Assembly (NCBI RefSeq): GCF_008838325.1
Contig: NZ_CP042829.1
Coordinates: forward strand, 1,488,001-1,552,000
Source of the DNA: Tepidiforma bonchosmolovskayae
GTDB lineage: Bacteria; Chloroflexota; Dehalococcoidia; Tepidiformales; Tepidiformaceae
DNA length: 64,000 nucleotides
Direction: 5' to 3'
Of the stretch, positions 28,574-63,290 are shown in pieces. Under the pieces are notes generated by a model that worked only from the letters and a program-made list of their open reading frames with translations, ran no database searches and had not been told where the DNA came from. Each line of letters starts with the position of its first letter. The first letter of the stretch is position 1. The position numbers and the translations under genes were made by a program.

Positions 28574-28703
28574 CGTTCCCGCGCATCATCGGTTCTGCCG
28601 CTAAATGCAGCAACAATTCTGCTCACATCGGCGTCAGCCCTCCCCGCCCTCCGCCGCGGCTGCCCCGCTCCACGCGCGCCGCCGTATCCTCTACCATCCG
28701 CCC

Positions 28704-30026
28704 ATGCCGTCACACGCCATCGACTGGTCCGCCTTCGCCGACGAAGCTGTCGACCTCCTCTGCCGCTTCATCCGGGTCGATACCTCCAACCCGCCCGGCA
28801 ACGAACGGCTCGCCTGCGACTTCCTCGGCGACATCCTCCGCCGCGAAGGCATCCCCTTCGAGCTCTATGACGCCGGCAACGACCGCGTCTCCCTCCGTGC
28901 CGTCCTCCCCGGCGACGGCTCGAAGCGGCCCTTCATGCTCCTCAACCACACCGACGTCGTCCCCGTCGAGCGCGAATTCTGGGACGACGACCCCTTCGGC
29001 GGCGCCATCCGCGACGGCTACATCTGGGGCCGCGGCGCCCTCGATATGAAGGGCCTCGGCATCGCCCAGCTCATGACCTTCCTCACCCTCCGCCGGCTCG
29101 GCCTCCCCCTCGCCCGCGATGTCGTTTTCTTCGCCCAGGCCGACGAAGAAGCCGGCAGCGAGTACGGCATGCGCTTCATCCTGCGCGAACACCCCGAGAC
29201 GATGGACGCCGAGTACATCATCAACGAAGGCGGCGCCGCCACCACCGAGCTGTTCGGCGTCGAACGGCCCGTCTACAGCATCGCCGTCGCCGAAAAAGGC
29301 CCCCTCTGGCTCCGGCTCGTCGCCGAAGGCATGCCCGGCCACGGCTCCGTCCCCCACGACGACAACGCCCTCGACCGCCTCGTCCGCGCCCTCGCCCGCA
29401 TCCAGCAGTGGGAGCGGCCGCTCACCGTCTCGCCCGTCCTCGAAGAGTACTTCGCCCGCCTTGCCCGGGCCGGCATCTACCGCGGCGACCCCACCCCGCA
29501 GGGCCTGGCCGCCCGCGCCGCCGAAGACCCGCGCATCCGCGCCATGCTCACCAACACCATCAGCACCACCACCGCCCGGGCCGGCATCAAGCACAACGTC
29601 ATCCCCGCCCGCGCCGAGGCCACCCTCGATATCCGCCTCCTTCCCGGCGTCGACCCCGCCGAATTCCAGTCCGAACTCGAACGCGTCATCGACGATCCCC
29701 GCGTCCGCATCGAACAGGTCCACGTCCGCTCCTCCGACACCAGCCCGTACGACACCGAGCTCTTCCGCTGTATCGAACAGGTCATCCACGAGTTCACCGA
29801 AGACGCCGTCGTCGTCCCCGGCATGACCCTCGGCTTCACCGACAGCGCCGAAACCCGCAACCGCGGCATCATCTCCTACGGCTTCTCCGCCGGCCTCACC
29901 ACCCCCGAGGTCGCCCGCGGCGTCCACGGCCACAACGAACGGGTCAGCATCGAGGCCTTCACCCTCACCTGCCGCCTCCTCTGGGAGGTCACCCACCGGA
30001 TGTGCGTCCGCGAACCCGGCGCGTGA
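28704..30026 (+). CDS. M20-family metallopeptidase/deacylase
   Basis: The 440-residue enzyme has the M20 dizinc centre: His-Asp in LLNHTDVVP (about 75-83), Asp in GRGALDMKG, the DEEAGS general base and bridging Glu, and the C-terminal His in VHGHNERVS. A bacterial exopeptidase dimerisation domain lies at about 200-330 (GHGSVPHDDNAL). It would hydrolyse an N-acyl amino acid or a dipeptide. A TACCAT element ends exactly six bases before the ATG. It may be followed in one transcript by the next two genes. Confidence 0.9.
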   Translation: MPSHAIDWSAFADEAVDLLCRFIRVDTSNPPGNERLACDFLGDILRREGIPFELYDAGNDRVSLRAVLPGDGSKRPFMLLNHTDVVPVEREFWDDDPFGGAIRDGYIWGRGALDMKGLGIAQLMTFLTLRRLGLPLARDVVFFAQADEEAGSEYGMRFILREHPETMDAEYIINEGGAATTELFGVERPVYSIAVAEKGPLWLRLVAEGMPGHGSVPHDDNALDRLVRALARIQQWERPLTVSPVLEEYFARLARAGIYRGDPTPQGLAARAAEDPRIRAMLTNTISTTTARAGIKHNVIPARAEATLDIRLLPGVDPAEFQSELERVIDDPRVRIEQVHVRSSDTSPYDTELFRCIEQVIHEFTEDAVVVPGMTLGFTDSAETRNRGIISYGFSAGLTTPEVARGVHGHNERVSIEAFTLTCRLLWEVTHRMCVREPGA

Positions 30027-45549: not shown

Positions 45550-46791
45550 ATGCCGAGCCTCGCCGAAATCAACCCCCTCGCACCCGAAACCGCCGAGTGC
45601 CCCTTCCCCTTCTACGAAGCCATGCGCCGCGAGTGCCCCGTCTACCAGGTCCCCGGCGCCGGCTTCTTCATCGTCTCCCGCTTTGAGGACATCCTCCACG
45701 TCCTCCGCCACCCCGAAATCTTCTCCTCTAAGTCCGGCCCCGGCCTCCGGCCCGTTCCCGATGAAGAGATCCTCGCCATCATGCGCCAGGGCTGGATGCC
45801 CGTGAACACCCTCCTCACCCAGGACCCGCCCGCCCACTCCCGCTACCGCGCGCTCGTCAATAAGGCCTTCTCCGCCCGGCGCGTCGCCAGCCTCGAACCC
45901 TCCGTCACCGCAATCGCCAACGACCTCATTGACCGCTTCATCAACGACGGCGAGGTCGAGCTCGTCCGCCAGTTCGCCGTGCCGCTCCCCCTCACCGTGA
46001 TCGCCGATGCCCTCGGCGTCGACCGCGCCGATATGGACCGCTTCAAGCGCTGGTCCGACGACTCCGTCGCACCCCTCGGCGGCTTCCTCACCCGCGAACG
46101 CGAAATCGAGTGCGCGAAGTCGATCGTCGAGTTCCAGCACTATTTCGCCGAGCGGCTCGAAGAGCGGCGCACCAGCCCCCGCGACGATATCCTCACCGAC
46201 CTCCTCAACGCCCACATCGGCCTCGAGGGCGACGAATCCCGCCCGCTCGATATGGCCGAGATGCTCAGCATCCTCCAGCAGATCCTCGTCGCCGGGAACG
46301 AAACCACCACAAACCTCATCGCCTCCGGCATGATGCTCCTCATCCATCGTCCGGAGGTCATGGAGCGGCTCCGCGCGCAGCCCGAGCTCATTCCCAACTT
46401 CGTCGAAGAAGCCCTCCGCCTCGAATCGCCGGTCCAGGGCCTCTTCCGCCAGGCCGTCGTCGATACCGAAATCGGCGGCACACCCATCCCTGCCGGCGCC
46501 CGCATCCTCCTCTCCTACGCCTCCGCCAACCGCGACGAAGCCGAGTTCCCCCACGCCGACCAGATCGACCTCGAGCGCGAGGCACCCGAAGGCCACCTCG
46601 CCTTCGGCCGCGGCGTCCACTACTGCCTGGGCGCCGCCCTCGCCCGCCTCGAGGCGCGCGTTGCGTTCACCCTCCTCCTCAGCCGGCTCAAGAACATCCG
46701 CGCCGCCGAGGGCAAGAACGACTACACCCACGTCCCCAGCGTGATCCTCCGTGGCCTCAAGGCCCTCTACCTCGAGTTCGAACCCGCCTGA
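45550..46791 (+). CDS. Cytochrome P450
   Basis: The 413-residue bacterial class I P450 has the oxygen-activating I-helix motif AGNETTT (248-254), the K-helix ExxR in EALR (287-290) and the haem-binding FGRGVHYCLG with Cys359. The size and the start (MPSLAEINPLAPETAECPFPFYEAMR) suit the CYP hydroxylases of terpenoids, fatty acids or steroids. It needs a ferredoxin and reductase, which are not in the window. The next gene is 16 bases downstream. Operator B precedes it. The substrate is unknown. Confidence 0.95.
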   Translation: MPSLAEINPLAPETAECPFPFYEAMRRECPVYQVPGAGFFIVSRFEDILHVLRHPEIFSSKSGPGLRPVPDEEILAIMRQGWMPVNTLLTQDPPAHSRYRALVNKAFSARRVASLEPSVTAIANDLIDRFINDGEVELVRQFAVPLPLTVIADALGVDRADMDRFKRWSDDSVAPLGGFLTREREIECAKSIVEFQHYFAERLEERRTSPRDDILTDLLNAHIGLEGDESRPLDMAEMLSILQQILVAGNETTTNLIASGMMLLIHRPEVMERLRAQPELIPNFVEEALRLESPVQGLFRQAVVDTEIGGTPIPAGARILLSYASANRDEAEFPHADQIDLEREAPEGHLAFGRGVHYCLGAALARLEARVAFTLLLSRLKNIRAAEGKNDYTHVPSVILRGLKALYLEFEPA

Positions 46792-46807
46792 GGAGACCGC
46801 CCGCCGC

Positions 46808-47977
46808 ATGCAGCTCCGCGATACCCCCGAACAGGCCGCCTGGCGCGAAGAGGTCCGCGCCTTCATCCGCGAGAATCTCCCCGCCGAGATCCGCGGCGTC
46901 ACCGGCTACTTCTACGACCCCCGCACCAACCCCGCCTTCGGCCAGTGGCGCGATGCCCTCGTCCGCCGCGGCTGGATCGCACCCGCCTGGCCGAAGGAGT
47001 ACGGCGGCGCCGGCATGACCGTCGTCGAACAGTTCATCCTCAACCAGGAGTTCGCCGAGGCCGGCGCCCCCCAGCCCGGCGGCCTCGGCGTCATGATGCT
47101 CGGCCCCACCCTCATCACCCACGGCACCGAAGAGCAGAAGCGCGAACACCTCCCCCGCATCCTCAGCGGCGAGGTCATCTGGTGCCAGGGCTACTCCGAA
47201 CCCGGCGCCGGCTCCGACCTCGCCGGCCTCCAGACCCGCGCCGTCCGCGACGGCGACGACTTCATCATCAACGGCCAGAAGATCTGGACCTCCTTCGCCC
47301 ACTTCGCCGACTGGTGCTTCCTCCTCGCCCGGACCGACCCCGACGCCCCCAAGCACCGCGGGATCACCTACTTCCTCGTCGATATGAAGTCGCCGGGGAT
47401 CACCGTCCGCCCGCTGGTCAACATGGCCGGCGGCCACGACTTCAACGAGGTTTTCTTCGAAGACGTCCGCGTCCCCGCGCGCAACGTCGTCGGCGAGGTC
47501 AACCGCGGCTGGTACGTCGGCGCCACCACCCTCGACTTCGAGCGCTCCTCCATCGGCACCGCCGTCGGCCAGCGCAAGAGCATCGAACGGTACACCGCCT
47601 GGCTGCGCGACCACCGCGCCCAGCTCCCGCCCTCCACCGTCGCGGCCATACGCCTCGCCTGGGCCGACCGCGCCGTCGACGTGCAGGTCCTTACCCTCCT
47701 CGCCTACCGCATCATCAGCATGCAGGCGGCCGGCAAGATTCCTAACGCCGAAGCCTCCATCGCCAAGCTCTTCACCTCCGAGACCGGCCAGCGCATCGCG
47801 CATACCGCCCTCCGCATGCTCGGCACCGCCGGCGTGCTCATGGACCGCTCCGCGCCGTTCAAAGGCGAAGCCGCCCGCGCCTATCTCAACGCCGTCTCGC
47901 TCACCATCGCGGGCGGCACCAGCGAAATCCAGCGCAACATCATCGCCCAGCGCGGTCTCGGCCTCCCGCGCGACTGA
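46808..47977 (+). CDS. Acyl-CoA dehydrogenase family protein
   Basis: The 389-residue ACAD has WCQGYSEPGAGSDLAGLQTRA (substrate/FAD loop, about 122-142), FIINGQKIWTSFAHFADW, FFEDVRVPARNVVGEVNRGWYVG and the C-terminal SLTIAGGTSEIQRNIIAQRGLGLPRD, the standard FAD-binding end. The catalytic Glu of short-chain dehydrogenases is not at the usual TSEIQR-relative site, and the sequence looks like steroid/aliphatic side-chain ACADs (FadE-like). It is in one operon with the P450, which suggests hydroxylation followed by beta-oxidation-type desaturation. Confidence 0.9.
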   Translation: MQLRDTPEQAAWREEVRAFIRENLPAEIRGVTGYFYDPRTNPAFGQWRDALVRRGWIAPAWPKEYGGAGMTVVEQFILNQEFAEAGAPQPGGLGVMMLGPTLITHGTEEQKREHLPRILSGEVIWCQGYSEPGAGSDLAGLQTRAVRDGDDFIINGQKIWTSFAHFADWCFLLARTDPDAPKHRGITYFLVDMKSPGITVRPLVNMAGGHDFNEVFFEDVRVPARNVVGEVNRGWYVGATTLDFERSSIGTAVGQRKSIERYTAWLRDHRAQLPPSTVAAIRLAWADRAVDVQVLTLLAYRIISMQAAGKIPNAEASIAKLFTSETGQRIAHTALRMLGTAGVLMDRSAPFKGEAARAYLNAVSLTIAGGTSEIQRNIIAQRGLGLPRD

Positions 47978-48023: not shown

Positions 48024-48815
48024 TTACAGCAGCGGGTACTCGCCCTTTGCCCAGCGGATGCCCCGCCGCAGCAGCTCCACGTATTCCGGCACCTCCCACG
48101 AGCCCGGCTCGAACCGCGGGTACTCCGGGAACTGGAACCGCCCCGCCGCGCTCCCGAACGCCTGCCCGCCCGGTGCCACCAGCATGTCGTACTTCCGGCG
48201 CCGGTGCCCCGGCGTCAGGTAGAGCACCGCTCCCTCGCCGAACGGGTGCAGGTACAGCACCGGCCACTCCCGCTCCTCCGGCCACGACGATTCCGCGAAG
48301 CCCGGCGCCTCTCCCCCGAACCGCGTGGCCAGGAGCGGCCGCACCTCCCCGTGATACTCGCAGAGGTAGAGCTCCTCCCCATCGCCGGTCTCCCAGCGCC
48401 CCAGCCCCTCGACCAGCGGGTGCTCCGCCACCGGCCACACGGGGTACCGCCCGGTCGGCGGGTGCGCGATGAACTGGCTCCCCAGCGTCTCCATGTACCG
48501 CGGGAGAATCCGCGGGCTGTGCACGCCGTCCGGCTCCATCTCGAACACCGCGTTCGTCCCGTGCAGGGCGAACCACCGCCCGCCCCGCTCCACGAACCGT
48601 GCCAGGTTCTCCACCTCGGCCTCGCCCGGGCGCAGGTCGCACGTGTACGTCACCACGAACCGGCAGCCCGCGATTCCCTCGATGTCCCGGAAATCGCGCC
48701 CGACGAGCACCCGCACGTCCTCGTGCTCCGCCAGCAGCTCCAGCAGCCGCAGCCGCGGGTAGTCGAAGTCGTGCCAGTTGCCCCCGCACACCAGGTAGCC
48801 GTCAATCCGGCCCAT
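48024..48815 (-). CDS. ThuA-like domain protein
   Basis: The 263-residue protein has a class I glutamine-amidotransferase-like ThuA fold: the start YLVCGGNWHDFDYPRLRLLELL, the central GCRFVVTYTCDLRPGEAEVENLARFVERGGRWFALHGTN and the later PVWPVAEHPLVEGLGR. ThuA-like proteins act in trehalose or carbohydrate degradation, but several are linked to unrelated catabolic operons. It is the last gene of the minus-strand operon starting at 52172. The catalytic Cys of amidotransferases is absent. Confidence 0.82.
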   Translation of the reverse strand: MGRIDGYLVCGGNWHDFDYPRLRLLELLAEHEDVRVLVGRDFRDIEGIAGCRFVVTYTCDLRPGEAEVENLARFVERGGRWFALHGTNAVFEMEPDGVHSPRILPRYMETLGSQFIAHPPTGRYPVWPVAEHPLVEGLGRWETGDGEELYLCEYHGEVRPLLATRFGGEAPGFAESSWPEEREWPVLYLHPFGEGAVLYLTPGHRRRKYDMLVAPGGQAFGSAAGRFQFPEYPRFEPGSWEVPEYVELLRRGIRWAKGEYPLL

Positions 48816-48849: not shown

Positions 48850-49608
48850 CTAGAAGTTCACCCGCTTCGTGAAACCGCCGTCGACGACCAGGTTCACCCC
48901 GGTAATCCACGAGGCCGCAGGGCTCGCCAGGAACGCTACCGCCCGCGCCACCTCCTCCGGCGTGCCCATCCGCCCCATCGGCTGCTGCTTCAGCGTCGCC
49001 TCATAGAACTGCGGCATCGCCTGCCTGATCATCGCCCACGGCCCGCCCTCGAAGTAAATCGGCCCCGGCGAGACCACGTTCACCCGGATCCCCTTCGACG
49101 CATAGGCCTGCGAGAGCGCATTCGCGTAGTTGATGAGCGCCGCCTTCATTGCACCGTAGCCGTTCGGCTGCCCGAACGTCTCCACGGCCGCCGTCGTGCT
49201 GATGAACACCACCGCCGGCGCCTCCGACTTCTCCAGGAACGGCCGGGCCGCCTCGAAACCGCGGACTGCGCCCAGCATGTCGACCTCGAAGTTCTGCACG
49301 AATCCCTGCTCGCCCGGCGCGGCGCCCCCGCTGGTGTTGCTCACGAAGATGTCGATCCCGCCGAGCTGCTCGCCGGCGCGCGCGATCCAGGCGATGTACT
49401 CGTCCCGCTTGCCCACGTCGACCGGCTCCGCCGCGACGGTCACGCCATGGCGCCGCAGCGCCTCCGCGGCAGCGTTCAGCCCGTCCGGCGTCCGCGCGCA
49501 GATGCCGAGGTGCACGCCCTCAGCCGCCAGCGTCTCCGCGATCGCCCGGCCGATGCCGCGGCTCGCACCCGTGATCAGCGCACGCTTCCCCTGCAGTCCA
49601 AGGTCCAT
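48850..49608 (-). CDS. Short-chain dehydrogenase/reductase
   Basis: The 252-residue SDR has [13 protein letters not shown] (about 13-25), the VSNTSGG replacement for NNAG, Ser in FISTTAAV and the YGAMKAA active motif (about 155-161), then [15 protein letters not shown]. It resembles 3-oxoacyl-ACP/3-hydroxyacyl dehydrogenases with an altered NNAG loop. It is in the 52172-48024 operon, so it probably acts in the same pathway as the other SDR there. Cofactor and substrate are unknown. Confidence 0.9.
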
Positions 49609-49657: not shown

Positions 49658-51373
49658 TCACGCCAGGGTGACCGTCCCCGTATCCCCGTCGACCGTCACC
49701 ACCTGGCCGTCGCGGATGACCCGCGTGGCGTACTTCGCCCCGACGACCGCCGGGATGCCGTACTCCCGCGCCACAATCGCCGCGTGGCTCAGCATGCCGC
49801 CGGTCTCCACCACCAGCGCCGCGGCCGGCACGAACAGCGGCGCCATCGGCGCATCGAACACCGGCAGCACGAGCACCTCGCCCGGCTGGACCTCCGTCTC
49901 GAGCGCCGCATCAGCGCTGGCGATGACCCGCGCCGGGCCGGTCGCCTTCCCGGGGCTGACACCCTGCCCGCTCAGCGCCGCCGCGCCCGGGCCGGCCGCC
50001 TCGCCCGCGGGGACGAGCTGCGTCGGCAGCTCGAACACGCCCCCCGGCAGCCGGTAGCCCTCCAGCCGGCGGTACTCCTCCTGACGCTCCCGCACCGCCG
50101 CCTTCGCGGCTGCCGGGTCCAGCGTCTCGAACTGGCGCACCTCCGCCAGCCGCAGGAAGAACACGTCCTCCGTCTGCTCCAGCGCGCCCCGCCGCACCAG
50201 CCGCCGGCCAATCTCCAAAAGCGGCGGCCGGAACGCCCGGCAGGCCCGCGCCCAGTTCGCCTTCGTCCCTTCGCGGCCGCGGTTGAGCCGCTGCGCCATC
50301 ACCAGCGTCTCCCGGAACTGTCGCCGCACGCGGTTCGGCAGCAGGCTCTCCACCCGCGCCTCGAGCCGCTCCCGCGCCGCAGCCGCCCGCGCCTCCTTCC
50401 GGTGCGGGTCCGCCGAGGCCGGCGCCGCCATATCGGCCCGGAGCGCCCCCAGCAGGAACCCCGGCGCCTCGTCCCACGTCGACGTCGACGGGTCGGTCTC
50501 CCGCTGCCCGCGGTACCCGTACTCCCGGATCAGCTCCCGGTACCGCGTCGCGAACGCCTCCCAGGCCGGCGACACCGGTGCCGCCAGCCGCGCCAGCAGC
50601 GCCTCCGTCGGCAGCTCCGCGAACGCCGCCGCAATCACCGCGCTCTGCCGCCCGGCCCGCGCAAGGTCCCACGTCGCCTTTCCCGGCTTCGCGCTCTCCA
50701 CATCGCGGAGCGCGCTCGTCAGCGTCGTCACCCACGTCGGCGGGTGCTTCGGCACGTGCTGGTCCAGCATGGCGCCCAGGATGCCCGTGTACTCCGCGCC
50801 CCCGACCGACACGATCACGTGCGAGACGAACAGCCCGGCGACAGCCTCGATGTTCTCGTCGATCGCGTGCAGCAGGTCATCGGCCCCCAGCCGCGGATAC
50901 TCCCGCGCCCATGCCTGCCGGTATGCCTTCGTCGAAATCTCCGCGCCGCGTGCGATCTCCCGCTCGGCGTTCCGCCAGCGCGCCATAATCCGCCGGCGCG
51001 CCGCCTTCGCCCGCTTGATGTCCTGCGCCTGGCCGGCCGTCAGCCCCTCGCCTTCGACGAACTGCTGGAGCATGTCCGTCCCGCCGCCCACCTGGTACGT
51101 CGAGGTGATCGCCATCGACCACGCCACCCCCAGCGTCCACCGGCCGCCGACCACCCCGAGCACGTTCATCGCCGGTGGCGGCGCCGTCGGCACCAGGTCG
51201 AGCACGCCCAGCTCCTCCGCCATCCGCGTCGTGAACCGGTAGTCCCACTGGTTGATCAGGTCCGCCGTCAGCGGCTTGATCACCCCCGGCAGCACCTCCT
51301 CAACGTTCCCGGTCGTAACCAGCCGGTAGCGCGGGTTCGGCTCCGCATCCCACGAGCAGAGTTTCTCCGTCAT
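49658..51373 (-). CDS. PEP-utilising-enzyme mobile-domain protein without ATP-grasp domain
   Basis: The 571-residue protein ends in the phosphohistidine swivelling domain of PEP synthase, phenylphosphate synthase and rifampicin phosphotransferase: [30 protein letters not shown], then [21 protein letters not shown] with His at about 529, and ITRDGQ-type end. The N-terminal and central helical ~450 residues match the middle region of those multidomain proteins, but the ATP-grasp module that phosphorylates the His is missing from this gene and neighbours. It could need a partner encoded elsewhere, as in split phenylphosphate synthase. GAGGAGGG precedes the start. Confidence 0.8.
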
Positions 51374-51386
51374 CCTTCCGCCCTCC

Positions 51387-52172
51387 TCAGTACTGCGCCG
51401 TCCCGCAATCGACCGAGATGCACGCGCCCGTGATCCCGGCCCCGGCCTCGCTCGCCAGCAGCAGCGCCACGGCGGCCACCTGCTCGACCGTGTTGATCTC
51501 CCCGGTCGCCGTCTTTGCCTTGAAGATCTTCTCCACCATCTCGTCCAGCCCAGAAAGGCCCATCGCCTTCGCGGTCGCATCGCCCGACTCCCGCACCGCG
51601 TCGGTGATGATGAGCCCCGGGCAGATCGCGTTGCAGGTGATCCCCAGCCGCCCGACCTCGAGCGCCGTGGTCTTCGTCAGCCCGTTCACGCCGTGCTTCG
51701 CCGCCACGTACCCCGCCATCCCGGCGGCCCCCTGCTTCCCCTCGACCGACGAGATGTTGATGATTCGGCCCGAGCCGCGCGGGATCATCTGCTGGAGCGC
51801 CCACTTCGTCCCGTAGAACACCCCGCCCAGGTTCCAGCGGATGTCGTTCTCCCACGCGTCGTCATCGAGCTGGGCGATCGGCGCCGGCCGCGTAATCCCG
51901 CCGGCGTTGTTCACCATGATGTCCAGCCGGCCCCACCGCTCGACCGCCGTGTCGACCAGCCGCTTCACGTCGGCGCTGTTCCGGGCATCCCCCTGCACGA
52001 AGACCGCCCGGACGCCCGCGCCCAGCTCGGCGAGCGCCTGCTCGCCCTTCTTCTGGTCCCTCCCGTTGAAGGCGACCATCGCGCCTTCGCGCAGGAAGGC
52101 CTCGACCAGCCCCCTGCCGATGCCGCGGCTCCCCCCGGTGACCGCGGCCACCTTCCCTTCGAGCATCTGCAT
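51387..52172 (-). CDS. Short-chain dehydrogenase/reductase
   Basis: The 261-residue classical SDR has TGGSRGIGRGLVEAF (about 13-27), NNAGGITRPAP, Ser in IINISSVEGKQG and the YVAAKHG active motif (about 162-168). CNAICPGLIITDAV and a C-terminal TGACISVDCG are those of 3-hydroxybutyrate/3-oxoacyl dehydrogenase relatives. It is the first gene of the operon that runs to 48024, and operator C lies upstream of it. ATGGAGGGACGC before the start contains the Shine-Dalgarno. Substrate unknown. Confidence 0.92.
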   Translation of the reverse strand: MQMLEGKVAAVTGGSRGIGRGLVEAFLREGAMVAFNGRDQKKGEQALAELGAGVRAVFVQGDARNSADVKRLVDTAVERWGRLDIMVNNAGGITRPAPIAQLDDDAWENDIRWNLGGVFYGTKWALQQMIPRGSGRIINISSVEGKQGAAGMAGYVAAKHGVNGLTKTTALEVGRLGITCNAICPGLIITDAVRESGDATAKAMGLSGLDEMVEKIFKAKTATGEINTVEQVAAVALLLASEAGAGITGACISVDCGTAQY

Positions 52173-61904: not shown

Positions 61905-63290
61905 ATGGCACTCAAGACCGTCGGCGACCAGGGCCGCCTCACCGAAGCCGGCTACCGCTCCGCCGGCACTCTCTACCAGGAGCTCCTCGACCAGGATTCC
62001 CGCCCGGTCCCCGAAGTCCTCCGCCTCGAATCCCCCATCGAGCCCGGCGTCACCCGCGTCCCCGCCGAACAGTACTACAGCAAGGCCATCCACGACCGCG
62101 AGGTCGAGAAGGTCTGGAAGCGCGTCTGGCAGATGGCCTGCCGCGAGGAAGACATCCCCGAAGTCGGCGACTACATCGTCTACGACATCGCCCACCTCTC
62201 CTTCCTCGTCGTCCGCAGCGCGCCCGACCGCATCCAGGCCTTCCATAACGCCTGCCTCCACCGCGGCCGCCAGCTCCGCGAATTCGACGGCCGCGGCGCC
62301 CAGGAGTTCCGCTGCCCCTTCCACGGCTGGTGCTGGGAGATCGACGGCTCCCTCAAAGAAGTCGTCTGCCAGTGGGACTTTCCCGAAGTCAACGAGCGCG
62401 ACTACCACCTTCCCGAGGTGAAGGTCGGCACCTGGGGTGGCTTCGTCTTCATCAACCCCGACCCCAACGCCGAGCCCCTTGAGCAGTTCCTCGGCGACCT
62501 CCCCCGCCACTTCGAACGGTGGGACCTCGCCAACCGCTTCAAGCAGGCCCACGTCGCCAAGATCCTCCGCTGCAACTGGAAGGTCGCCCAGGAAGCCTTC
62601 ATGGAGGCCTACCACGTCGTCGCCACCCACCCCCAGCTCCTCAACGGCATCGGCGACTCCAACTCCCAGTACGACGTCTTCGGCAACTTCTCCCGCGCCA
62701 TCACCCCGAACGGCACCCCGAGCCCCCACCTGCGCGAGGTTCCCAGCCAGCAGGACATGCTCGACGCCATGTTCGACCGCAACCTCGATACCCCGCCGCT
62801 CGCCGAGGTGCCGCCCGGCATGGGCGCCCGCCAGTTCGCCGCCATGCTCAGCCGCGAAGGCATGCGCGCCGTCATCGGCGACGAGGCCGATACCTACTGC
62901 GACGCCGAATACCTCGACTCCTTCTACTTCACCGTCTTCCCCAACTTCCACCCCTGGGGCGCCTTCAACCGCATCACCTACCGCTTCCGCCCCCACGGCG
63001 ACAACCCCGACGAGTGCATCATGGAGTGCATGTTCCTGGCGCCCTGGCCGAAGGGCGAGCCGAAGCCCCCGGCCGCGCCCATCCACTGGCTCGGCCCCGA
63101 TGACGACTGGGCCGACGCCCCCGAACTCGGCATGCTTGCCCGCGTCTTCAACCAGGACACCTTCAACATCCCGAAGGTCCAGCTCGGCCTCAAGACCATG
63201 AAGCGGCCGGAAGTCGTCTTCGCCAGCTACAACGAAACGAAGATCCGCCACTTCCACCAGCTCTACGACCGCTGGATGGAGCTCGAATAG
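61905..63290 (+). CDS. Rieske non-haem iron oxygenase, alpha subunit
   Basis: The 461-residue product is the catalytic subunit of an aromatic-ring-hydroxylating or related Rieske oxygenase. The Rieske cluster is bound by CLHRGRQL (Cys117, His119) and CPFHGW (Cys137, His140). The mononuclear iron ligands are His237 and His242 in EAYHVVATHPQ, with the Asp probably in FNQDTFNIPKVQ near 425. The size and the linked regulon suggest a monooxygenase or demethylase rather than a two-subunit dioxygenase, since no beta subunit follows. It needs a reductase that is not in the window. GGAGG is before the ATG. Confidence 0.94.
   Translation: MALKTVGDQGRLTEAGYRSAGTLYQELLDQDSRPVPEVLRLESPIEPGVTRVPAEQYYSKAIHDREVEKVWKRVWQMACREEDIPEVGDYIVYDIAHLSFLVVRSAPDRIQAFHNACLHRGRQLREFDGRGAQEFRCPFHGWCWEIDGSLKEVVCQWDFPEVNERDYHLPEVKVGTWGGFVFINPDPNAEPLEQFLGDLPRHFERWDLANRFKQAHVAKILRCNWKVAQEAFMEAYHVVATHPQLLNGIGDSNSQYDVFGNFSRAITPNGTPSPHLREVPSQQDMLDAMFDRNLDTPPLAEVPPGMGARQFAAMLSREGMRAVIGDEADTYCDAEYLDSFYFTVFPNFHPWGAFNRITYRFRPHGDNPDECIMECMFLAPWPKGEPKPPAAPIHWLGPDDDWADAPELGMLARVFNQDTFNIPKVQLGLKTMKRPEVVFASYNETKIRHFHQLYDRWMELE

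What the first reader, a model, noticed from the sequence alone, without database searches (positions are those of the whole stretch)
49658..51373. PEP-utilising mobile domain without its ATP-grasp partner, in a dehydrogenase/ThuA operon
Seen: the swivelling phosphohistidine domain [10 protein letters not shown] is present, but no ATP-grasp domain is in this gene or its neighbours. Family knowledge: phenylphosphate synthase and rifampicin phosphotransferase need both modules, sometimes as separate genes. Here the protein could phosphorylate an alcohol or phenol on the pathway intermediate, a route seen for anaerobic phenol but unexpected beside P450 and Rieske oxygenases.
Basis: partly seen in the sequence, partly recalled or inferred. 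Interest (0 to 1): 0.5.

Follow-up and report, generated by a model that had tools for sequence, protein, structure and literature searches.

The report
Kinase half that lost its partner
This gene is the substrate-binding and phosphate-carrying half of a two-part enzyme; related bacteria encode the ATP-using half elsewhere in the genome, whereas this heat-loving genus has lost it and altered the phosphate-carrying domain, which makes it a test case for how such an enzyme changes its phosphate source.

Summary
Window 49658-51373, MINUS strand, encodes 571 aa: the acceptor-binding body and phosphohistidine (swivel) domain of a rifampin-phosphotransferase/HpeH-type dikinase, without ATP-grasp, in an operon TetR-SDR-H-SDR-ThuA (genus Tepidiforma). 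In 12 of 12 sampled relatives outside the genus that carry this subfamily, plus one further syntenic relative, a stand-alone HpeI-like ATP-grasp gene exists; it was unlinked wherever examined. One single-contig relative has two such subunits and one ATP-grasp gene, so supply in trans seems the norm. The window's genus (6 genomes) has no stand-alone ATP-grasp. In the five genus members that hold the gene, the swivel motif A..T...WT is replaced (A503L, T506F, W510M/L, T511A) and the swivel evolves as fast as the body, while three paralogs in the same genomes keep motif and slow swivel. His530 and acceptor-site R367/E368/K371 remain. Best reading: a two-component dikinase subunit that lost its ATP feeder and probably uses another phosphoryl donor through His530. 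An ATP-grasp borrowed in trans (a PPDK-derived half) and a decaying relic are live rivals. Donor and substrate are inferred.

The parts
49658..51373 (-). acceptor-binding + phosphohistidine (swivel) subunit of a two-component small-molecule dikinase, 571 aa (P0002)
50009..51373 (-). acceptor-binding body, residues 1-455, like the RIF-binding domain of rifampin phosphotransferase
   Evidence: profile of 13 relatives matches RPH 5fbs over profile positions 154-570, E 9.8e-53
50261..50275 (-). R367-E368-G-T-K371, equivalent of RPH-Lm Arg666-Glu667-Lys670 (acceptor-site residues), conserved
   Evidence: alignment; conservation; role of Arg666/Glu667 from PMC4844700 passages
49676..49888 (-). PEP-utilizers mobile (swivel) domain PF00391, residues 496-566
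49841..49867 (-). residues 503-511: genus-specific replacement of A..T...WT (A503L, T506F, W510M/L, T511A)
49784..49786 (-). His530, the phospho-accepting histidine (GGMLSH), conserved
51387..52172 (-). short-chain dehydrogenase upstream in the operon
   Evidence: order kept in L014, and a homolog beside the gene in four genus-g4 loci
48850..49608 (-). short-chain dehydrogenase downstream in the operon
48024..48815 (-). ThuA-like protein, last gene of the operon
   Evidence: PF06283 45.1 bits; kept in L014
52309..52962 (-). TetR-family regulator, first gene on the strand
   Evidence: ORF; aligns with ORFs in relatives at 31-40%
46751..47977 (+). acyl-CoA dehydrogenase

Best explanation
The gene encodes the H-type subunit (acceptor-binding body plus swivel phosphohistidine domain) of a two-component small-molecule dikinase of the HpeHI/CreHI/PpsAB kind. 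SHOWN by sequence: family, missing ATP-grasp, intact His and acceptor-site residues; relatives have one unlinked stand-alone HpeI-like ATP-grasp gene; the window's genus has none; the A..T...WT stretch of the swivel domain is replaced in all five genus copies and the swivel is less constrained there. INFERRED: in relatives that single ATP-grasp protein charges the H subunits in trans (ATP to His~P to the hydroxyl group of a pathway intermediate). After the feeder was lost in Tepidiforma, the subunit was freed from ATP-grasp docking and now moves a phosphoryl group through His530 from another donor, for example a phosphorylated metabolite; HpeH alone is reported to do such an exchange. The acceptor is probably an oxidised aromatic or alicyclic intermediate handled by the flanking SDRs.
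For: Family: profile match to RPH over body and swivel, E 9.8e-53. Partner in relatives: the top 12 genomes for the 317-aa ATP-grasp protein are exactly the 12 non-genus genomes, of 245, with the >=40% subfamily, and it matches HpeI (PDB 9GOJ) at 2.4e-43. No H gene was recognised beside it in the 9 loci listed. In single-contig G077 the only PF00391 genes are PPDK and two copies of this subfamily, with one stand-alone ATP-grasp. After the pattern was seen, the genome of L014 (51% identical, syntenic, motif intact) was checked and has the partner too. Loss: 0 of 6 genus genomes has it; the genus clade is nested among partner-bearing copies. Altered swivel: of 52 sites identical in 21 non-genus rows, 6 are changed in all five genus copies, 4 of them within 503-511 (random clustering 389 of 100,000). 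Swivel/body divergence 0.95-1.74 in the genus, 0.00-0.84 in the other clades. In the same five genomes the orphan H583, the H577 and the RPH-like paralogs keep TD..WTP and a slow swivel (0-7 of 108 differences against 5-26). Catalysis kept: H530, R367, E368, K371 in all five; purifying selection, omega 0.08-0.33. ATP-free exchange by HpeH alone is reported in PMC12167813 (abstract).
Against: No structure: the AlphaFold model was poor (mean pLDDT 42.3), so that residues 503-511 face the ATP-grasp docking site is inferred from the family mechanism, not seen. The swivel core (496-566) is still 86-97% identical among genus members. Three other genes with ATP-grasp domains in the genome could supply phosphate in trans. 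No phosphorylated metabolite donor is identified. Carboxylase or phosphatase genes of the Hpe or Cre pathway were not looked for. omega is higher than for the SDR neighbours (0.04-0.13), which also fits relaxed selection and decay.
Confidence: 0.5

Rival explanations
1. Still ATP-dependent, with a borrowed partner: the PPDK-derived half (725 aa: ATP-grasp, swivel, extra C-terminus; G000:C1:1275253-1277430), or the ATP-grasp of the fused RPH-like protein or of PEP synthase, charges the subunit in trans.
For: Within the 19 sampled genomes of the family, those with orphan H genes have either the stand-alone ATP-grasp (9) or the H577/PPDK-half pair (8); the two without orphan H genes have neither (the PF00391 inventory was not run on three of the nine). 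The PPDK-half matches PPDK over residues 17-514 (E 4.6e-109) and keeps the PPDK_N and PF00391 domains. A plasmid region pairs an H protein with a 502-aa 'pyruvate, phosphate dikinase'.
Against: H577 and H583, the subunits most likely served by it, keep TD..WTP and a slow swivel in the same genomes, so working with this donor does not need the changes seen. The Thr at the place of T506 is also present in the PPDK-half swivel (read by eye from the sequence).
Confidence: 0.27
2. Decaying or non-catalytic relic: after losing its ATP-grasp the protein is kept only as a binding protein, or is on its way out.
For: Partner lost; a normally invariant swivel stretch replaced; swivel constraint relaxed; omega above that of the SDR neighbours; one genus genome, G249, lacks the gene, but it is 72% complete.
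Against: Intact reading frame in 5 of 5 genus copies; His530, the GG loop, R367, E368 and K371 are kept, and 46 of 52 universally conserved sites are unchanged in all five; the replacements F506, A511 and L503 are fixed in all five rather than drifting.
Confidence: 0.15
3. Ordinary two-component kinase whose stand-alone ATP-grasp gene was simply missed or lies in an assembly gap.
For: The partner is unlinked in relatives, so it is easy to overlook; draft genomes exist in the genus.
Against: Three genus genomes are single contigs, and 0 of 6 has it by family search; the best match of the partner in G000 is PEP synthase at 36%. The swivel changes remain unexplained.
Confidence: 0.04

Closest known systems
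HpeH of HpeHI (Rhodococcus rhodochrous GD02), PMC12167813
   Same: Same architecture as described in the paper: RIF-binding-like body plus swivel, ATP-grasp as a separate protein; the relatives' ATP-grasp protein matches HpeI 9GOJ.
   Different: The ATP-grasp gene is unlinked in relatives and absent in this genus; swivel stretch changed; substrate unknown.
Rifampin phosphotransferase RPH (5FBS), PMC4844700
   Same: Body and swivel align over profile positions 154-570; Arg666/Glu667/Lys670 and His825 have equivalents.
   Different: RPH is one chain with its own ATP-grasp; no evidence of rifampin as substrate; T and W of its TDPSWTP stretch are replaced here.
CreHI and PpsAB (4-methylphenol and phenol kinases)
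   Same: Two-component phenol kinases, known here only from PMC12167813 passages.
   Different: Sequences not compared directly; partner absent here.
VadK (Rv1127c), PMC13400623
   Same: PPDK-derived half kinase that autophosphorylates on His (abstract and passages); resembles in architecture the 725-aa PPDK-half of this genome, a possible donor.
   Different: A possible donor type, not the protein of the finding; VadK is described as a regulatory kinase of the methylcitrate cycle. Its sequence was not compared.

Membership tests
RPH/HpeH-type small-molecule dikinase superfamily | swivel domain with phospho-accepting His | tested here: met
   PF00391 82.8 bits; H530 in 63 of 63 distinct swivel domains
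RPH/HpeH-type small-molecule dikinase superfamily | RIF-binding-like acceptor domain with Arg/Glu/Lys that position the phosphate | tested here: met
   profile alignment to 5fbs, E 9.8e-53; R367/E368/K371
Two-component dikinase (HpeHI/CreHI/PpsAB) | separate ATP-grasp subunit encoded in the genome | tested here: not met
   0 of 6 genus genomes has a stand-alone PPDK_N gene; met in 12 of 12 non-genus relatives in the class sample and in G245
Two-component dikinase (HpeHI/CreHI/PpsAB) | conserved swivel TD..WTP stretch of the wider family | tested here: not met
   A503L, T506F, W510M/L, T511A in 5 of 5 genus copies. That this marks the family is our reading of the alignments, not a published criterion
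Two-component dikinase (HpeHI/CreHI/PpsAB) | ATP-dependent phosphorylation of a phenol or alcohol | not testable with these tools
   needs purified proteins
Rifampin phosphotransferase (NCBIfam RIF_Ptrans_rph) | score above the curated cut-off, full length with ATP-grasp | tested here: not met
   133.6 bits against cut-off 999; no ATP-grasp
PEP synthase / PPDK | PEP/pyruvate-binding domain and ATP-grasp | tested here: not met
   Pfam finds PF00391 only

The most novel reading that the evidence does not exclude
In these Chloroflexota one stand-alone ATP-grasp protein acts as a hub that charges several unlinked acceptor subunits, like Enzyme I of the PTS; in Tepidiforma one such subunit has cut loose from ATP altogether and works as an ATP-independent phosphohistidine transferase, with a rebuilt donor face on its swivel domain.
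Probability: 0.3. Interest if true: 0.75.

Novelty: new variant of a known kind. Interest (0 to 1): 0.52.

Why it matters
Two-component dikinases were described as pairs in which both parts are needed. Here is a natural series: partner present but unlinked (12 relatives plus one), one partner for several subunits, and partner gone with the phosphate-carrying domain altered. That makes two questions directly testable: whether one ATP-grasp protein can serve many acceptor subunits, and what a phosphohistidine domain does when its ATP site disappears. It also warns annotators that 'PEP-utilizing enzyme' genes without ATP-grasp are not necessarily broken, and it points to possible acceptor subunits for PPDK-derived half kinases such as VadK.

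Tried and rejected
Tried without use: the AlphaFold2 model from 5 sequences was poor (pLDDT 42.3), so no fold search was made. Paper searches for tertiary-alcohol phosphorylation and for PEP-utilizing/steroid found nothing. A remnant of the ATP-grasp gene was looked for in the window: no match below E 0.29. The M20 peptidase that precedes the ATP-grasp gene in G195 and G245 has two equally similar homologs in G000 (48% and 47%), so the site of loss cannot be named.

Rejected: PEP synthase, PPDK or RPH proper; assembly gap as the reason for the missing partner (three single-contig genomes); pure decay as first choice (46 of 52 universal sites kept in all five copies). A genus-wide mutation artefact is rejected because three paralogs in the same genomes are not affected. 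Adaptation to the PPDK-half as the cause of the motif change is disfavoured because H577 and H583 keep the motif.

Limits: G100 (class member) has a 630-aa acceptor-half ORF, and its only PPDK_N match lies in a 765-aa frame like PEP synthase, so a stand-alone or PPDK-half donor is not universal. G031 has the stand-alone ATP-grasp (45%) without the >=40% subfamily, and G207 a weaker match (41%). The class sample is 245 genomes, and only the best five candidates per genome were scored. Relatives are related, so 12 of 12 is about six lineages. Of 26 known subfamily copies (25 plus L014), 20 had their surroundings searched for ATP-grasp, some on short contigs; six (G152, G216, G233, two each) were not fetched. 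Alignment rows: L095 (cut by a contig end) was left out of the conservation counts; L099 (34% identity) was counted with the paralogs. The tree left out Rhod_H1 and G100 and used the body only. Linkage of the stand-alone gene to H genes was read from ORFs called by a simple script in 9 loci, one of them a 4.5-kb contig, and from G245; the loci of G216, G152 and G242 were only searched for the gene itself.

Full report
WHAT IS THERE. The finding's coordinates hold one gene on the minus strand, 571 aa. Pfam sees only the PEP-utilizers mobile domain at the C-terminus. A profile of 13 relatives matches rifampin phosphotransferase (5FBS) over profile positions 154-570 with E 9.8e-53, so the N-terminal part is not unknown: it is the acceptor-binding half of that enzyme. 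The missing piece is the ATP-grasp domain. The gene lies in an operon TetR, SDR, H, SDR, ThuA. The order of these genes is kept in L014, at 51% identity of the H protein, and in L098 of the same genus. The search for related loci places the genus as Tepidiforma, thermophilic Dehalococcoidia reported to be active on aromatics (PMC10284905, abstract and passages).

THE PARTNER IN RELATIVES. Among 245 genomes of the class, 17 carry this subfamily (at least 40% identity over nearly the whole length, one copy cut by a contig end): five of the window's genus and twelve others. The twelve others are exactly the top twelve genomes for a 317-aa stand-alone ATP-grasp protein, which matches HpeI, PDB 9GOJ, with E 2.4e-43. 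No H gene was recognised beside this gene in the nine loci listed. No ATP-grasp was found near any of 20 subfamily copies. In single-contig G077, PF00391 finds only PPDK and two copies of this subfamily, and PF01326 finds PPDK and one stand-alone ATP-grasp. One feeder for two subunits is then the simplest reading. H and ATP-grasp genes do stand side by side elsewhere in the class (coordinates, for example G001:C3 and G051:C3), so being unlinked is a property of this subfamily, not of the whole group.

THE PARTNER IN THE WINDOW'S GENUS. Six genomes of the genus are held. None has a stand-alone ATP-grasp; five have the subfamily gene, and the sixth is 72% complete. The window's genome has six PF00391 genes: PEP synthase, the window gene, H583 (orphan), H577 directly followed by a PPDK-derived half of 725 aa, that half itself, and a fused RPH-like protein. 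In a tree of the body part the genus clade sits inside partner-bearing copies (100/100 at the 15-row node), so the partner was probably lost rather than never present. The genome of L014, whose copy keeps the usual motif, was searched after the pattern was seen and has the stand-alone ATP-grasp (54% identity to that of G184).

THE SWIVEL DOMAIN CHANGED. Of 52 sites identical in 21 non-genus rows (14 of this subfamily and 7 paralogs or RPH-like), six are changed in all five genus copies: N82G, F281L, A503L, T506F, W510M/L, T511A. Four lie within nine residues; random choice from the 52 sites clusters that much in 389 of 100,000 draws. T506 is T in 58 of 63 distinct swivel domains and F only in the five genus copies; H530 is H in all 63. 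The swivel domain, normally slower than the body, is about as fast or faster in the genus: ratios 0.95-1.74, against 0.00-0.84 in four other clades. With pairs of similar body divergence the difference has z between 2.4 and 3.6 (the pairs share sequences and are not independent). The best control is inside the genomes: H583, H577 and the RPH-like protein of the same five genomes keep TD..WTP and show 0-7 swivel differences of 108, against 5-26 for the window gene. H583 is also an orphan, so lack of a neighbouring ATP-grasp gene is not by itself the cause.

HOW IT MOST LIKELY WORKS. RPH acts in two half reactions: ATP-grasp phosphorylates the swivel His, then the swivel carries the phosphate to the acceptor site, where Arg666 and Glu667 are essential (PMC4844700, passages). 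The window protein keeps the second half (H530, R367, E368, K371). The changed stretch, by exclusion, most likely concerns the first half, docking to ATP-grasp; this is inference, since no usable structure was obtained. HpeH alone moves a phosphate from 4-phosphoacetophenone to acetovanillone (PMC12167813, abstract). I therefore think it most likely that the protein still transfers phosphate through His530 but from another donor. The main rival is a borrowed ATP-grasp, with the PPDK-half as candidate: within the family of 19 sampled genomes, orphan H genes occur with either the stand-alone ATP-grasp (9) or the H577/PPDK-half pair (8), and the two genomes without orphan H genes have neither (PF00391 was not run on G152, G216 and G233). 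Against it, H577 and H583 did not change their motif. A relic without catalysis is possible but must explain why 46 of 52 universal sites stay fixed in all five copies.

COMPARISON. The architecture is that of HpeH/CreH/PpsA and of the C-terminal two thirds of RPH. The CreH, HpeH and PpsA sequences themselves could not be obtained, so kinship with them rests on the RPH alignment, on the HpeI match of the partner and on the paper's description. The protein fails the test of having a separate ATP-grasp subunit in its own genome. It should be called a derived member of the RPH/HpeH superfamily, not a two-component kinase.

NOVELTY. Paper searches for two-component RPH-like systems, for dikinases with orphan parts and for Tepidiforma returned the HpeHI, RPH and PTS papers and a Tepidiforma physiology paper; a term search in that last paper found no mention of PEP-utilizing genes. 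No description of unlinked or lost ATP-grasp partners was seen in these listings and passages. The library lacks most subscription journals.

Noticed in passing
L016:7519-11431 (G000:C1:1273518-1277430); also G206:C62, G162:C12, G092:C122, G025:C26: A PPDK-derived half kinase (ATP-grasp + swivel, VadK-like in architecture) is directly preceded by an RPH-type acceptor half. This suggests that such half kinases have acceptor subunits, which the VadK passages read do not mention.
   Followed up: partly
G042 (0.8 Mb genome, 85% complete): Seven acceptor-half genes, one stand-alone ATP-grasp and one PEP synthase in a very small genome: an extreme one-to-many ratio.
   Followed up: no
L112 (Rhodococcus pyridinivorans plasmid pA, NZ_CP113799.1): Acceptor half, 502-aa 'pyruvate, phosphate dikinase', P450, aldehyde dehydrogenase, SDR and SurE phosphatase in one region, reminiscent of a cre pathway with a PPDK-half as ATP module.
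   Followed up: no
window 28605-30026; L103:7902-10189; L126:1647-3586: An M20 peptidase gene directly precedes the stand-alone ATP-grasp in G195 and G245; two M20 homologs in G000, one in the window, are followed by other genes.
   Followed up: partly
L105:9037-9762, L108:8826-9551, L111:10308-11039: In genus g4 the stand-alone ATP-grasp gene stands next to a gene whose start reads like a formylglycine-generating-enzyme (SUMF1-type) protein; the name is recalled from motifs, not tested.
   Followed up: no
L086, L088, L090, L092: A second subfamily copy in genus g4 lies near a Rieske oxygenase homolog of the one at window 61905-63290 (45-61% identity).
   Followed up: no
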